Shown piece by piece: positions 12,184 through 60,701 of a stretch of 64,000 nt of DNA. Position 1 is the stretch's first letter. The number at the start of each line of letters is the position of its first letter. The position numbers and the translations under genes are program-made. The notes below the pieces were generated by a model. It saw nothing but the letters and a program-made list of their open reading frames with translations. It made no database searches and was not told where the DNA came from. This stretch comes from Thermoanaerobaculia bacterium (GTDB taxonomy: Bacteria > Acidobacteriota > Thermoanaerobaculia > Thermoanaerobaculales > Sulfomarinibacteraceae): contig JAMOWA010000059.1 in NCBI GenBank assembly GCA_027061805.1, positions 1 to 64,000 on the forward strand, in the 5' to 3' direction.

Positions 12184-12378
12184 GACGTGAGCCACTTGCA
12201 AGACTCTCTGAAGGTCATGCCCATCGGCGAGGCGTGAAATCGAAGGTATATCCGGATTCTTGCTCTCTTCTTCTTGATCCGATCAATCCGTGTGATCCGT
12301 GGTCCATTTTCCCGGGTGGGTGGGGGCCGATGCCGCAGGAATCCACCTCGATCCAGGACTCCTGCAACAGGCTCACGT
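12184..12378 (+). repeat. MITE-like dispersed element, copy A
   Basis: About 195 bp, clearly more AT-rich than its surroundings. It aligns without visible gaps to the reverse complement of 35400-35597 at about 80% identity. Its ends form imperfect terminal inverted repeats: ACGTGAGCCACTTGCAAG at the left and ACGTGAGCCTGTTGCAGG (reverse complement) at the right, 15 of 18 matching. A conserved internal word is GATCCGATCAATCCGTG. A short reading frame in both copies shares a motif ending SIQDSCNRL, but nothing shows it is translated. No transposase is present, so it would need help to move. It fills most of the 356-bp gap between 12159 and 12514. Confidence 0.75.
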
Positions 12379-32513: not shown

Positions 32514-35357
<2,844 letters not shown>

Positions 35358-35399
35358 GGCTGCCGGGACGGAGGCCCGCCCCTGCCCGCTCATCGTGAA

Positions 35400-35597
35400 A
35401 CATGAGCCTGTTGCACGAGTCCTGGATCGAGGAGAATTCCCGCGATATCGGCCCCCACCCACCCGTGAAAATGAACCACGGATTCCACGGATTGATCGGA
35501 TGAAGAAGAAGATAGAAATATCCCGGACATACGCCCGAATTCACGCCAGGCAGAGGGGCATGACCTTCAGGGAGTCTTGCAAGTGGCTAACGTGAAA
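35400..35597 (-). repeat. MITE-like dispersed element, copy B (inverted)
   Basis: The reverse complement matches copy A at 12184-12378 along its length with no obvious gaps. Ends read ACGTTAGCCACTTGCAAG and, inverted, ACATGAGCCTGTTGCACG. Its outer flank continues as GTGAAAGATGAAACGTG and then AAACGAAGG (to about 35619), and that flank reappears at 59452-59480, which suggests the true element or its insertion site is longer. Confidence 0.75.
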
Positions 35598-35619
35598 GAT
35601 GAAACGTGAAACGAAGGAG

Positions 35620-35899
35620 CCCCCGCCCGGGAGGGAGGGACGCATCCGGGCATTCCGGCGGAAGTCCTGTGACGGCCTCGCTTCGCAGCGGTCTGGATCC
35701 TCCGCGAAACCCCCGGGCGATCCCTGGGCGCCTGGGGTTCGCGCGGCTTGTCAAGGAGCCTCCGTCGCGCGCGGAGTGGTTCCGGCGGTGTGGGGTCGCG
35801 CTCGAGCGATCCCGCGGGACTTCCACCGGTTCCCGGCCGCGCTGTACACGGCCGGTCTTCGTCCTGCCAGCACGTCCCCCCGCCGGTCAATCCCCCGGC
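35620..35899. other. Gene-free stretch
   Basis: Between the dispersed repeat and the nuclease remnant. No convincing ORF, RNA gene or repeat is seen. Open frames here are short and lack recognisable motifs. Confidence 0.4.
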
Positions 35900-36400
35900 G
35901 CCTTCAGGAACCCAGCCTGCCGGGAAACGGCTGGTGTAGGCCGCCTCGTCGCTCAACACGGGGATCCCGAACCTGGTGGCCTGCTCCGTCACGAGCTCTG
36001 CCAGCCTGCGATGGACCCACTGCGACAGGCGCCGGTTCTCGATCCGCGGGCGGTCCGACCGGAAGAGGCAGCGGCTCAGGCTCTCCAGCACGATCACGTC
36101 CACGGGCTCGTACCGCCGCACCCAACCCGAGGGGCCGTGGGCGAGGCCCCGGGCCGCCTGCACGATCAGGTCGGCCGTGGTCTTTGCCCTGTCCTCCTTG
36201 AGGTGGTTGATGTGCTCGAGCAGGTTCCGGGCCACTGTTCCCATCCGCGCCCGGTCCATCCGCCGAACTCCCTCCTGACCGGAGGCCTGATGCAGGTGCC
36301 ACTGGAGCAGGAAACGCCGGACCTGCTCCAGGTGGATCAGCCATTCCAGGAGCCGGGCATCGCCGAAGGCCCTTCCCAGCTCCCGCTGGAGCTCCCGGCA
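35900..36400 (-). pseudogene. TnpB/Cas12-like RuvC nuclease remnant
   Basis: Read from about 36400 downward on the minus strand, one frame stays open with real protein character: ELGRAFGDARLLEWLIHLEQ, then EHINHLKEDRAKTTADLIVQ, DVIVLESLSRCLFRSDRPR, ENRRLSQWVHRRLAELV and GIPVLSDEAAYTSRF. This order matches the bridge-helix-to-RuvC-II part of TnpB/Cas12-superfamily proteins; the Glu in VIVLESL would be the RuvC-II acid. The RuvC-I Asp, the RuvC-III Asp and the zinc ribbon are absent. The 5' side runs into a stop within the tandem repeats at 36428; the 3' side loses similarity after about 35920. No CRISPR array or intact neighbour is seen. Confidence 0.65.
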
Positions 36401-36427
36401 TGGCGCCGGCGAAGCCGGCCAGGGACA

Positions 36428-36515
36428 GGGTCGGGGTCACGGTCAGGGTCACGGTCGGGGTCGGGGTCGGGGTCACGGTCGGGGTCGGGGTCGGGGTCGG
36501 GGTCAGGGGTGCGGC
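36428..36515 (+). repeat. Short tandem repeat (GGGGTC/ACGGTC units)
   Basis: About 85 bp of degenerate 6-bp units GGGGTC, ACGGTC and AGGGTC. Low complexity, between the nuclease remnant and the htrA upstream region. There are no spacers, so it is not a CRISPR array. Confidence 0.8.
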
Positions 36516-36523
36516 GGGCGGGG

Positions 36524-36575
36524 GCGGTCGCACCTCGCACGGGTGGCGGGCGGATGGCGCACTCCCCGGCTGGTT
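36524..36575. repeat. GC-rich intergenic repeat, second copy
   Basis: GGTCGCACCTCGCACGGGTG followed by GCGGGCGG and a GCGCACTCC tail, matching the start of the window (about 14-60). The htrA promoter region begins right after it. Confidence 0.5.
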
Positions 36576-36579
36576 CTGG

Positions 36580-36585
36580 CATACT
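36580..36585 (+). promoter_or_regulatory. Putative -10 of htrA
   Basis: CATACT, preceded by TGG (extended -10-like), ends 7 bp before the ATG at 36593, again implying a leaderless mRNA. No clear -35. Confidence 0.4.
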
Positions 36586-36592
36586 GGCGGGC

Positions 36593-37927
36593 ATGTCGAG
36601 ACGAACGATTCCCGGTGTCATCGTCCTGTTGGCGATCCTGGCCGCGGCATCCCCCGTCCGCGGCGGCTCGCTCCGGCGGGACGCCGTGGTGGCCGTGGTG
36701 GAGACGGCCCGGCCCGCCGTGGTCAACATCAGCGCCCTGAGCCTGGTGCAGGTGCCCCGGAGGTCGCTCTTCGACCAGCTGTTCCCCGAGCTGTGGGGCG
36801 TGGGCCCCTCGGTACGGGAGGCCCAGTCCCTGGGCTCGGGCGTGCTCATCTCGGCCGACGGCCTGGTGGTGACCAACGAGCACGTGGTGGAGGGCGCCTC
36901 GGAGATCCGCGTGACCCTGGTGGACGGGCGTGAGCTCGAGGCGGAGGTGCTGGGCTCCGACGTGGAGAACGACCTGGCGCTGCTGCGGCTCAAGCTGGGC
37001 AGGAACGCCCGTCCCCTGCCCCACCTCGAGCTCCGCCGCCGGGACGACCTCATGGTGGGCGAGACGGTGGTGGCCATCGGCAACCCCTTCGGCCTGGAAT
37101 CCACCGTCACGAAGGGCGTCATCTCCGCCCTGAACCGGACGGTGAGCTCCCGCCGCTCGGGCCGGACCTACGCCGACTTCATCCAGACCGACGCCTCCAT
37201 CAACCCCGGCAACTCCGGCGGGGCGCTGGTGGACCTGGACGGCGGCCTGGTGGGCATCAACACCGCCATCATCGAGTCCGCCCGGGGCATCGGCTTCGCC
37301 ATCCCGGCCAGCCGGGCCCGCAGGGTGGTGGACGACCTGCTCCGCTTCGGCCACGTCCGGCCACTCTGGCTCGGCGCCGTGATCCGTCCCATCGCCGCCA
37401 GGGGCCGCGACCTTCTCGGCGAGCAGGGGGGCCACGGGCTGCTCGTGCGGCGGGTGCTCCCCGGCTCCCCGGCCGCGGCCGCGGGCCTCGAGCGGGGCGA
37501 CCTCATCGTCCGGGTGGGCGACCGGCGCTCGGCGGACCTGGCGGACCTGCGCACCGTGCTGGCCTCCAACGCCCCCGGCGACGCGGTCCGCCTGGAGGTC
37601 CTGGACGACGCCGGACGTCACCCCGTGACGGTGACACCCAGGACCCCCCCGGACGACCTGGGCCAGAGGATCCTGGATTCGTGGCTGGGGCTCGCCGCCA
37701 TCGACGGCCCCCGCGGTGTGGTGGTCCGGAGGGTGCGGCCCGGCAGCCCGGCCGCGGAGACCGGCCTGGAGGCCGGGGACCGGATCCTGGCCGTCCACGG
37801 GCGGCGCGTGGCCTCGGTGGCGGAGATCAACGAGGTCATGGTGGCCGACCCCGACGCCCCGTCCATCTTCCTGGTGGTGGGCCGCGGCCGCTGGGCCTAC
37901 AACCTGACCTTCCCGCTCGATGAGTAG
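36593..37927 (+). CDS. HtrA/DegP-family periplasmic serine protease
   Basis: 444 aa. Signal peptide (PGVIVLLAILAAA), trypsin-like domain with catalytic His97 (TNEHVVE), Asp127 (VENDLALL) and Ser208 (GNSGG), then two PDZ domains (about 250-340, with GLERGDLIVRVGD; about 355-440, with GLEAGDRILAVHG). A protein quality-control protease/chaperone of the envelope. First gene of a chain of overlapping genes; its end overlaps the DUF3857 gene by 8 bp. Confidence 0.94.
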   Translation: MSRRTIPGVIVLLAILAAASPVRGGSLRRDAVVAVVETARPAVVNISALSLVQVPRRSLFDQLFPELWGVGPSVREAQSLGSGVLISADGLVVTNEHVVEGASEIRVTLVDGRELEAEVLGSDVENDLALLRLKLGRNARPLPHLELRRRDDLMVGETVVAIGNPFGLESTVTKGVISALNRTVSSRRSGRTYADFIQTDASINPGNSGGALVDLDGGLVGINTAIIESARGIGFAIPASRARRVVDDLLRFGHVRPLWLGAVIRPIAARGRDLLGEQGGHGLLVRRVLPGSPAAAAGLERGDLIVRVGDRRSADLADLRTVLASNAPGDAVRLEVLDDAGRHPVTVTPRTPPDDLGQRILDSWLGLAAIDGPRGVVVRRVRPGSPAAETGLEAGDRILAVHGRRVASVAEINEVMVADPDAPSIFLVVGRGRWAYNLTFPLDE

Positions 37928-40900
37928 GCGCCTCGCCACCGCGTTGCTGGGCCTGGCCCTGGCGGTCCCCCTGGCGGCGGGGGCGGGGAGCATCGAGGAG
38001 CTGTCGGCGGCACACCTGGAGGCCGCCCTGGACGGGGGGCTCCACCCGGCGGACCTCCACCACCTGTTCCTGGCCTTCTCCTGGCGCGACGACCTGGCCG
38101 ACCACCGGTGGGTCGACGGCGCCGTGGACCGTCTCTCGGCCGCGGGTGCCACCGACCCCCTGATGGCCTCCGAGCTGCGCTGGCTGCGGGCACGGCTCGC
38201 CGTGGAGGAGGGGCACCCGGCCGCCGCGCTCGAGCTCTTCCGGGCCGACGGCGGGCTGGAGCGGTGGTGGGCCGCGGGCCCCGCGACCCTGGAGGAGCTC
38301 CAGGACATGGAGTCGCTGGAGTCCGTGCCCCTCGACGAGCTCTCCTGGCGGGCCGCTCCCGGCGTGGACCCGCTGGGCTGGGTGGCGGTCTCCGGGCTGG
38401 GATGGCCCGGGGAACGGCAGCTCATGTGGCTGGCCACGACCGTCGCGAGCGACGGGGACCGGCCCGTGGCCCTGCACGTGGGCGCGGCCCAGGCGGCGCG
38501 CCTCTGGGTGAACGGCGAGCTCTGCGTGGCCACGCCCCATCCGCTGAGGCGGGGCGCCGACCAGGCCACCTGCGGCGCCTGGCTCCGCGACGGGAACAAC
38601 CTCGTGGTGGCCGCCGTGGCCACCGAGCGGGGGCCCTGGTGGCTCAGGGTCCGCCTCACGGCCCCCGACGGCTCCCCGCTGTCCGGCGTCCGCGAGACGG
38701 ACCGCCGCCCCGCGGCCGTGGAGCCGCAGGGCCGGCCCGCACCCGAGGTGCGGGACCTGGGCCGGGAGATCCTCGTGGCACTGGAGGAGGGACGCCCCGG
38801 CGCCGCCATGGCGCGGGCGGTCGACCTCCTCTTCCACCGATCCGAGCCCGAGGGCAGCGGCGCGGTGACCGCGGCGTGCCGGGCCGCGCGGGATGACGCC
38901 CCGGCCGAGGCCCGCCTCCTGGAGGCCCTGGAGACCGACGAGCCCGGCGCCCGGCGGCAGCTCCTCGCCGCGGCCGTGGACCACGATCCCGGCCTGCTGC
39001 CCGCCCGGCTGGCCCTGGCCGACTGGGACCACTCCCGCGACCTCGACGTGCCGGCCCACGCCATCCTGGAGCCCGTGCTCTCCGAGCCCGCCGCCATGGC
39101 CCGCGACCTGGACCTGGCCGCGGACCTGTGGGGGGCCACGGTCGTCCCCCGGCTCGAGGAGCTGGGACGGCGCCACCCCGCCTCGGTGACGGTCCAGAGC
39201 ACGCTGGCCTCCCGGCTCATGGACGCCAGCCGGTGGTCGGCCGCCCGGGAGGCGCTGGGGCGCCTGGCGGCCCTCGTGCCGGGCGACCCGGCCACCGTGG
39301 GTCTCCGGGAGCGGCTGGCCAGCGCCTGCGGGGACCAGGAGACCCTGCGCGGCATCTGGGAGCGCGAGCTCGCCGCCGACCCCAACCTCCCGGAGGTCCG
39401 GATCCGGCTGGCCCGCCTCCTCCTGGCCGCGGGCGAGGCCGACGGTGCCGCCGCCGTGCTCCGGGAGGGCCTCGACCGGGCCCCCGGGCACGTGGACCTG
39501 CTCCACGAGCTGGCCCGCCTCGCCCACGCGGAGGGCCGGGACGACGAGGCGTCGGAGCTCGTGGCCGCCATCCTGGAGATCCGGCCCCAGGACCGGAGGG
39601 CCCAGCGCCTGTCGAACCTGCTGGGGGTGACGGCGGACGACATGGGGTGGGTGCGGCCCCCCGGGGTCCTCCGCGAGATGGCCTCGGGTGTGGAACGTAC
39701 GGGGAGGGCGCGCCTCCTGCTCGAGCACCACGAGGTCCGCTTCCTGCCCGGCCATCTCACCGAGGAGCGGGTCCAGCGGGTGGTGCTGGTGGGGGATCCC
39801 GAGGCGGCCAGGGCCTTCCGCACCATGAGCGTGGCCCACGTCCCCGAGCGGCAGGACCTCCGGGTGCTGGCCGCCCGGGTGCTCCGCGCCGGGGGCGGGG
39901 AGACCGCCGCGGTCCAGCGGGACACGCCCCGCCTGGCCGACCCCGGCATCAACATGTTCTACGACACCCGGTTGCGGACCTTCCGGTTCCCCGAGCTGGA
40001 CGAGGGCGACCTGGTGGAGCTCACCTACATCCTGAGCGAGACGGCCGAGTCCAACGAGACCGGGGCCTACGCCGGCGGGCTCGTGGTGATCCCCGACGGC
40101 GCGCCCGTGGAGCTCGCGGAGATCGAGCTCTCCGGCCCGCCCGGACTCCTGCCGGCCTGGGAGCTGGCCAACGTGGAGGGGGAGCCGGAGCGGACCGTGG
40201 ATCCCGACGGGACGGTGCACCTCCGGTGGCGGTGGGAGGACCTCCCGCAGGCGCCGCCCGACCTGCCCCCGGCGCCGCCCCTCCTGGTGACCCCCCACCT
40301 GGCGTACTCCAACCACCCGGACTGGGGGGACCTGGCCGACTGGTACCGGCGTCACGTGGCGCCGCGCCTCATGGTCTCCAGCGAGGTCCGGGAGCGTGCC
40401 CTGCGCCTGGTGGAGGGCCTGGAGAGCCGCCGGGAACGGATCCGGGCCATCTACAACTTCGTCACCCAGGACATCCGCTACGTGGCGCTCGAGTTCGGCG
40501 AGCACCGGTACCGCCCCTTCTCGGCGGACTGGGTGCTCCGCCATCGCATGGGGGACTGCAAGGACAAGGCCGGGCTCATGGTGGCCCTGCTCTCGGTGGT
40601 GGACATCCCCGCCCGCATGGTGCTCCTCCGGACCGCAGACCAGGGGCCCGTGGCCGTCCGGCTGGGCCTCCTGGAGGACTTCAACCACGCCATCGCCTAC
40701 CTCCCCGAGGACGACCTCTACCTGGACGGCACGGCCTCGGGCCACGACGCCGATCTTCCCCCCGGGGCCGACCAGGGGGCCTGGGCGCTGGTGATCGACG
40801 GGCCGGACAGCGAGCCGCTCACCACCCCGAGGCCCGGCCCGGGCGTCTCCCGCAGGGTCATCCGGATCACCGCCGGGGAGGGCGGCAGGGCGACGGTGAA

Positions 40901-59528: not shown

Positions 59529-60701
59529 TCACTCCCGGTACAGCAGCAGCCCCTCCAGGGTCTCCCCGAAGGCCGCGGCCTCCCGCCGCCAGTCCTCGAG
59601 GAGCACCCCGAGATCGGCCCCGGCCTCCAGGGCCTCCCGGGCGCGGGCGTCCCCGGTGAGCAGGTCCATGGCGGGGATCTCATCCACGAACTCGTAGGCC
59701 TCGCCGCGCCAGCCGAAGGCGCCGGGGCTCAGCCGGAGTGCCGCCTCCAGCAGGCGGAGGCCCAGCTCCAGCGGCCGGAGGCGGTCGCGGTCCACCACGG
59801 CCAGCTCCACACCCGAGCAGACCTCGCCCGCGTGCTTGCCGAAGGCCGGTCGGAACCAGGCGGGGCGCGCGGCGATCCCCTCCGCCTCCCGGAGTGCCGC
59901 CGCCAGGCCGGGGGCGTCGAGCCCGGGCGCGCCCACCAGCTTGAAGGGGCGGGTGGTACCCCGGCCCTCGGAGAGCGTGGTGGCCTCCACCAGGCAGAGC
60001 CCGGGGTAGAGGACGGCGGTCTCCAGGGTGGGCATGTTGGGCGAGGGGGCCACCCAGGGCAGGTCGGTCCCGTCGAGCCAGGCGCTCCGGCGCCAGTTGC
60101 GGCAGGGGATCACGGTGAGCTCGAGTCCCGGGTAGCGGTCCCGCTGCAGCAGCAGGGCCAGCTCGCCCAGGGTGAGGCCGTGGCGCACGGGCACGGGAAC
60201 GCGGCCCACGAAGGACTCGAAGCCCGGCCGGACCAGCCCACCCTCCCGCACGACGCCGCCCAGGGGGTCGGGACGGTCGGCCACCACCACCTCGACACCC
60301 TGCCGCTCGCAGGCGGCCATCATGGCGTCCATGGTGGCGGCGAAGGTGTAGTGGCGCGTCCCGATGTCGGGCAGGTCCACCACCACCACGTCCATGCCCT
60401 CCAGATCCTCCGGTCGCGGCTCCAGGCTCGCCGCGGTGGTGCCGTAGAGGGATCGCACGGGCAGGCCGGTGAGCGGGTCCGCCTGGTCCTCCACCCCCTC
60501 CATGTCCTGGGCCACCCCCTCCAGGCCGTGCTCGGGGGCGAAGAGCAGGGCCGGTGGGCCGGCGGCCCCGGCCAGCGCCGCACGTCCGGGCCTGAGGTCG
60601 GGGAGCACCGTGGCGTGGTTGCACAGGAAGGCCCAGGAGCGGCCCCTGAGGGGGAAGGGATCCTCCACGAGGATCTCGAGTCCGGGGATCACGCGGTCCA
60701 T
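59529..60701 (-). CDS. DUF1343 (NamZ-like) exo-beta-N-acetylmuramidase
   Basis: 390 aa. Family pattern: RSWAFLCNHATV, ALLFAPEHGLEG, SLYGTTAASLEPRPEDLEGMDVVVVDLPDIGTRHYTF (split for length: SLYG, then VVVDLPDIGTRHYTF), VADRPDPLGG, PSPNMPTLE, EGRGTTRPF. NamZ-type enzymes of this family remove MurNAc from peptidoglycan fragments. Most characterised members have a signal peptide; none is evident from ATG 60701, so it may act in the cytoplasm or the start may be wrong. TACCAT lies 6 bp upstream. Confidence 0.82.
   Translation of the reverse strand: MDRVIPGLEILVEDPFPLRGRSWAFLCNHATVLPDLRPGRAALAGAAGPPALLFAPEHGLEGVAQDMEGVEDQADPLTGLPVRSLYGTTAASLEPRPEDLEGMDVVVVDLPDIGTRHYTFAATMDAMMAACERQGVEVVVADRPDPLGGVVREGGLVRPGFESFVGRVPVPVRHGLTLGELALLLQRDRYPGLELTVIPCRNWRRSAWLDGTDLPWVAPSPNMPTLETAVLYPGLCLVEATTLSEGRGTTRPFKLVGAPGLDAPGLAAALREAEGIAARPAWFRPAFGKHAGEVCSGVELAVVDRDRLRPLELGLRLLEAALRLSPGAFGWRGEAYEFVDEIPAMDLLTGDARAREALEAGADLGVLLEDWRREAAAFGETLEGLLLYRE

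What the first reader, a model, noticed from the sequence alone, without database searches (positions are those of the whole stretch)
35900..36400. Relic of a TnpB/Cas12-superfamily nuclease next to the MITE-like element
About 160 codons retain the helical segment, HINHLKEDRAKTTADLIVQ, the RuvC-II-like VIVLESL, ENRRLSQWVHRRL and GIPV...AAYTSRF, but lack the RuvC-I and RuvC-III acids and zinc ribbon. The 5' side is cut by a tandem repeat. The spacing and the (D/E)RPR.EN.RL.QW motif look closer to some Cas12-like or diverged TnpB groups than to common IS605 TnpB. Proximity to an element with inverted ends raises the possibility that a related nuclease family once accompanied it.
Basis: partly seen in the sequence, partly recalled or inferred. 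Interest (0 to 1): 0.62.

Follow-up and report, generated by a model that had tools for sequence, protein, structure and literature searches.

The report
Broken Cas12b CRISPR locus with tracrRNA
This is the wreck of a type V-B CRISPR system in an Acidobacteriota genome: a twice-cut piece of the Cas12b DNA-cutting gene followed by its still well-folded helper RNA (tracrRNA), so it is a dead relic of a known system rather than a new nuclease.

Summary
The minus frame 36400-35918 encodes a nuclease fragment, but of Cas12b (C2c1, CRISPR type V-B), not TnpB: NCBIfam Cas12b 1.5e-37, PADLOC Cas12b 1.7e-39, Pfam C2c1_RuvC 1.6e-22; TnpB models reach only 7e-07. The nearest intact protein, from another Acidobacteriota genome, is 60% identical.

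The fragment joins Cas12b residues 365-385 in frame to 769-911. An internal deletion therefore removed about 385 codons with RuvC-I, and the 3' end with RuvC-III is gone; the RuvC-II Glu remains. A covariance model built only from intact loci finds it at 51.1 bits, E 3.7e-12 (next best 11.9 bits), with 17 of 17 model pairs formed, some by compensatory change. A second hairpin conserved in related loci follows (35702-35745). No V-B repeat array, no cas1/2/4 next to the fragment and no intact cas12b were found; the genome's two Cas1 genes belong to I-C and III-B systems.

The adjacent MITE-like element is a separate high-copy repeat (40 or more copies) without link to Cas12b. Verdict: a decayed member of a known kind; low interest.

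The parts
35918..36343 (-). cas12b remnant, main piece: equivalent to residues 769-911 of the 1138-residue open frame of the nearest intact Cas12b (locus L044); keeps the RuvC-II glutamate (VIVLESL)
   Evidence: tblastn 60% identity over 143 aa, 7.9e-47; 58% to L048; NF033949 886-1032
36338..36400 (-). cas12b remnant, second piece in the same frame: equivalent to residues 365-385 (before RuvC-I); fused to the main piece by an in-frame deletion of about 385 codons
   Evidence: 48% (21 aa) to L044, E 0.023; 61% (18 aa) to L048, in the same order and frame; NF033949 380-402 at 36332-36400
35775..35856 (-). type V-B tracrRNA gene (core), directly downstream of the cas12b remnant
   Evidence: covariance model from nine intact loci, window not included: 51.1 bits, E 3.7e-12; 17/17 model pairs
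35702..35745 (-). conserved hairpin GCGCGAACC...GTTTCGCGG that lies between tracrRNA and repeat array in intact relatives; role unknown
   Evidence: alignment with L047, L048, L055, L057; blastn 74% to L048, E 0.005
35401..35592 (.). MITE-like high-copy repeat with inverted ends (CGTGAGCCNNTTGCAAGANTC), lying where the repeat array would be expected
   Evidence: at least 40 matching copies in the genome; edges and ends from copy alignment
36416..36527 (.). GGGTCG/A hexamer tandem repeat that abuts the 5' edge of the cas12b remnant
   Evidence: Tandem Repeats Finder; similar repeats at about 20 other places in the genome
32481..35357 (+). uvrA (flanking gene)
   Evidence: ORF; closest relative 89% over 89 C-terminal residues
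36593..37927 (+). HtrA/DegP-like serine protease (flanking gene)
   Evidence: ORF; assignment from the sequence, not searched by profile

Best explanation
The interval between uvrA and the htrA-like gene is a decayed CRISPR type V-B effector locus read on the minus strand. It once held cas12b, then its tracrRNA, then a conserved hairpin, then presumably a repeat array, in the order seen in intact relatives. The cas12b gene lost its 5' third (the edge is now a hexamer tandem repeat), an internal stretch of about 385 codons with the RuvC-I aspartate, and everything after residue 911 with the RuvC-III aspartate; the array is gone, its expected place taken by a copy of an unrelated MITE-like repeat. 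What remains cannot make a cutting enzyme. Shown: the Cas12b identity of the protein pieces, the tracrRNA with intact pairing, the order, and the absence of another cas12b in the held genome. Inferred: that the deletions are decay (one junction may use the shared bases TGGC), that an array was once present, and that the locus came by horizontal transfer.
For: Cas12b profiles at 1e-37 to 1e-39 against 7e-07 for TnpB. Two nearest relatives agree on the two fused pieces in frame and order. The tree puts the relic with them at 100/99 support. tracrRNA: 51.1 bits, E 3.7e-12, the only strong hit in 64 kb and in the genome; structure supported by covariation, 46 two-sided changes against 18.3 expected, 17/17 pairs in the relic. 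Its GAAGTCCC matches the ...TTGGGAC repeat ends of L047 and L048, whereas other lineages have GTGCC with GGCAC. Whole-genome search: no other Cas12b; none in 19 same-family genomes; only 3 other genomes of 396 in the phylum.
Against: The 161-codon frame has no stop or frameshift and keeps GC3 0.90 and 27 of 30 clade-invariant residues, so decay is recent or the piece may still be translated (an ATG with AGGAGG upstream lies at 36259). The perfect pairing of the tracrRNA could point to retained use. The genome is a draft in 68 contigs (97% complete), so a distant array or second cas12b could be missing.
Confidence: 0.93

Rival explanations
1. A relic of a TnpB (IS605/IS1341-type) or of a diverged TnpB-like family that accompanied the MITE-like element.
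For: TIGR01766 TnpB-related model matches at 7e-07 and guided_TnpB at 0.0075; a MITE-like element lies about 330 bp away.
Against: Cas12b models are 30 orders of magnitude better; the fragment clusters inside Cas12b; a V-B tracrRNA follows; no Rfam family matches nearby; the element has at least 40 copies, while the genome holds a single Cas12b-like piece.
Confidence: 0.02
2. The shortened Cas12b and/or the tracrRNA are retained and still do something, for example a non-cutting RNA-binding protein or a regulatory RNA.
For: Open frame with coding-like composition; tracrRNA with 17/17 pairs and compensatory changes against each relative.
Against: Two of three catalytic acids and most of the protein are missing; the downstream half of the open frame is tracrRNA sequence, not protein; the relic branch is long (0.66 against 0.16 and 0.21) and it has lost residues invariant in all intact proteins; no relative carries the same form.
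Confidence: 0.04
3. An assembly artefact joined pieces of a real V-B locus from another organism into this contig.
For: Draft genome; a tandem repeat and a high-copy repeat lie on the two sides, which are places where assemblies break.
Against: The interval lies inside a 255-kb contig between two host-like genes; the internal deletion inside the gene is not at a repeat.
Confidence: 0.04

Closest known systems
CRISPR type V-B, Cas12b (C2c1)
   Same: RuvC region and RuvC-II glutamate, gene order cas12b-tracrRNA, tracrRNA structure with covariation; 60% identity to L044/L047 (JAJYCJ010000062.1, Acidobacteria BP9.bin43), 58% to L048 (JAKAFH010000110.1), 38% to an Alicyclobacillus Cas12b
   Different: No RuvC-I or RuvC-III, most of the protein deleted, no array found, no adaptation genes beside it
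IS605-family TnpB
   Same: Common RuvC-II segment of the superfamily
   Different: Much weaker match, no zinc ribbon, no insertion-sequence partner, tracrRNA of V-B type
Cas12f / Cas12X-type miniature Cas12
   Same: Weak match in the RuvC-II region
   Different: E-values 6e-05 and 0.017 against 1e-39 for Cas12b; the small size here is due to deletion

Membership tests
Cas12b / CRISPR type V-B | Sequence in the Cas12b family | tested here: met
   1.5e-37 and 1.7e-39, though 129 bits is under the NCBIfam full-protein cut-off of 150 because only about a tenth of the protein is left; tree support 100/99
Cas12b / CRISPR type V-B | RuvC-I Asp, RuvC-II Glu and RuvC-III Asp | tested here: not met
   Only the RuvC-II Glu is present; residues 386-768 and those after 911 are missing. 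So this is a remnant, not a functional member
Cas12b / CRISPR type V-B | tracrRNA next to cas12b | tested here: met
   35775-35856, E 3.7e-12, 17/17 pairs
Cas12b / CRISPR type V-B | Repeat array with matching repeats | tested here: not met
   No array in the window; no genome match to L044's repeat with up to 3 mismatches; the repeat predicted from this tracrRNA gives no more hits than the control
Cas12b / CRISPR type V-B | Adaptation genes (cas4-cas1, cas2) in the locus | tested here: not met
   The two Cas1 genes of the genome lie on other contigs, with I-C and III-B systems; adaptation genes were not checked in the intact relatives, so this is weak
TnpB (IS605/IS1341) | Best match to TnpB models, zinc ribbon, omega-RNA or IS ends | tested here: not met
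   TnpB models 7e-07 and 0.0075; no zinc-ribbon sequence; no Rfam hit at E up to 1; the inverted-end element is a separate repeat
Cas12b / CRISPR type V-B | Guided DNA interference | not testable with these tools
   Needs experiment; expected absent without RuvC-I and RuvC-III

The most novel reading that the evidence does not exclude
The tracrRNA (and perhaps the short Cas12b piece) was kept for a new role after the nuclease was lost, for example as a regulatory RNA, which would explain its perfect pairing beside a ruined gene.
Probability: 0.03. Interest if true: 0.6.

Novelty: new member of a known kind. Interest (0 to 1): 0.2.

Why it matters
It records the loss of a type V-B system in an Acidobacteriota lineage that now carries I-C and III-B systems, and it adds a third member to a Cas12b clade (with L047 and L048) whose tracrRNA and repeats show GTCCC/GGGAC complementarity instead of GTGCC/GGCAC. 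The tracrRNA model (83 positions, strong covariation) may help annotate V-B loci; no Rfam family matched the tracrRNAs of L047, L048 and L057 at its gathering score.

Tried and rejected
Single-sequence scans of genome contigs and viral contigs with the fragment found nothing; an alignment of three intact Cas12b proteins found 27 loci in genome contigs and one distant N-terminal match in viral contigs. Empty-site comparison failed: the uvrA-htrA neighbourhood is not conserved in the ten relatives fetched. Further cas12b pieces in 34000-38000: only the two reported stood out from noise. Spacers of the genome's own arrays do not match the relic. A weak tracrRNA-model hit in one same-class genome (G039, 26.5 bits, E 9.6e-4 in a search of 60 genomes) was left as probable chance. 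The paper library gave nothing useful on Cas12b pseudogenes or Cas12b in Acidobacteria.

Full report
Observation. Third-position GC of 35918-36400 is 0.90, near that of uvrA and the htrA-like gene (0.96), and the pattern vanishes in the same frame below 35918, so the frame was a real gene and the homologous part ends there.

Identity. Profile searches place the fragment in Cas12b (C2c1): Pfam PF22126 1.6e-22, NCBIfam NF033949 1.5e-37, PADLOC Cas12b 1.7e-39. TnpB models reach 7e-07 and 0.0075 and Cas12f models 6e-05, as expected for the shared RuvC-II region. Among solved structures the match is Cas12b/C2c1 (5wqe, 1.8e-19); entries such as 5u30 have alanine where 5wqe and this fragment have the RuvC-II glutamate (that these are catalytic mutants of E848 in the Alicyclobacillus enzyme is from established knowledge).

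Anatomy of the protein part. Intact Cas12b genes were found in three other genomes of 396 sampled in the phylum, and 27 loci in GTDB genomes with names, which shows that the phylum is Acidobacteriota. The nearest, L044/L047 (Acidobacteria BP9.bin43), is 60% identical over its residues 769-911; the next, L048, is 58%. The first 20 or so residues of the fragment, LQRELGRAFGDARLLEWL, match L048 LQRQMGRAFGSEVALRWL and L044 LQAEMGRDFGSEVVLQWL at about residue 365, in the same frame and directly before the main piece. The family profile independently places 36332-36400 at positions 380-402 and 35918-36334 at 886-1032. Each short match is weak alone (E 0.02 to 7), but two relatives and one profile agree on place, order and frame. 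So an in-frame deletion of about 385 codons removed RuvC-I; in L044 both sides of the join carry TGGC, which fits a deletion at short shared sequence (inference). The gene's 5' part ends at a hexamer tandem repeat, of a type found at about 20 other places in the genome, and the 3' part after SRF, with RuvC-III, is gone.

The RNA part. Comparing the flank with L048 gave a 46-nt match between cas12b and the array of L048, which led to the finding that 35857-35775 (minus) aligns with a conserved RNA downstream of cas12b in L047, L048, L051, L053, L055, L057, L058, L061 and L063. A covariance model built from those nine, without the window, finds 35775-35856 at 51.1 bits, E 3.7e-12; the next window hit has 11.9 bits. 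It also recovers an unused Cas12b locus, L052, at 44 bits. The structure is supported by 46 two-sided changes against 18.3 in shuffles and fails when slid. The window copy forms all 17 pairs and has between one and eight compensatory changes against each relative. The RNA is identified as the V-B tracrRNA by position, by structure, and by complementarity to the repeats: GTCCC with ...TTGGGAC in L047 and L048, GTGCC with ...GGCAC in other loci, and in L047 and L048 a further stretch after the core that resembles the reverse complement of the repeat (complementarity read by eye). A further hairpin, GCGCGAACC...GTTCGCG, is shared by L047, L048, L055, L057 and the window.

What is missing. No other Cas12b in the genome, no copy in 19 same-family genomes, no tracrRNA in the other family and order genomes searched, no repeat like that of L044 or like the one predicted from the relic. 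The genome's Cas1 genes belong to a I-C locus with Cas3, Cas5, Cas8, Cas7, Cas4 and a 34-unit array (type assigned by gene order and repeat, read by eye) and to a III-B-type locus with Cmr1, Cmr6, a PrimPol and an array. The sparse distribution, and a tree where the relic groups with an Acidobacteriota of another family and a contig binned as Actinomycetes, suggest horizontal transfer (inference).

The MITE-like element. 35401-35592 is a copy of a roughly 192-bp repeat with inverted ends, at least 40 copies in the genome. With two copies in this 64-kb window alone, nearness to the relic needs no special link. It lies about where the V-B array would be expected by the spacing in L048, so it may mark the lost end of the locus (inference).

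Mechanism and verdict. In life the system would have worked as type V-B does: Cas12b with crRNA and tracrRNA cutting DNA with one RuvC site (established knowledge). The remnant lacks two of three catalytic acids and most of the protein, so it is dead as a nuclease. Loss of residues invariant in all intact proteins (2 of 18; 3 of 30 in the clade) and the long branch fit relaxed constraint, but the open frame and the sound tracrRNA suggest that decay is recent. This is a decayed new member of a known kind; interest is low.

Noticed in passing
35401-35592 and 12186-12377: Two copies of a roughly 192-bp high-copy repeat with imperfect inverted ends (CGTGAGCCNNTTGCAAGANTC); at least 40 copies in the genome, one beside the III-B Cas1-Cas2 genes (L041:11834). 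No transposase for it was sought.
   Followed up: partly
35702-35745; L047, L048, L055, L057 between tracrRNA and array: Hairpin GCGCGAACC...GGTTCGCGC conserved between tracrRNA and repeat array in several V-B loci, often with a further GGTTCGCG before the array; role unknown.
   Followed up: partly
window 60273-60295: A spacer of the genome's own I-C array (L042, spacer 1) matches 22 of 23 bases here, a possible partial self-match.
   Followed up: no
L041:8179-11770: PrimPol-type adaptation polymerase gene next to Cas1 and Cas2 in a III-B-type locus with an array of more than 30 units.
   Followed up: no
L138 (G039:C197:3922-3996): Weak hit of the tracrRNA model (26.5 bits) in a same-class genome without Cas12b.
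   Followed up: no
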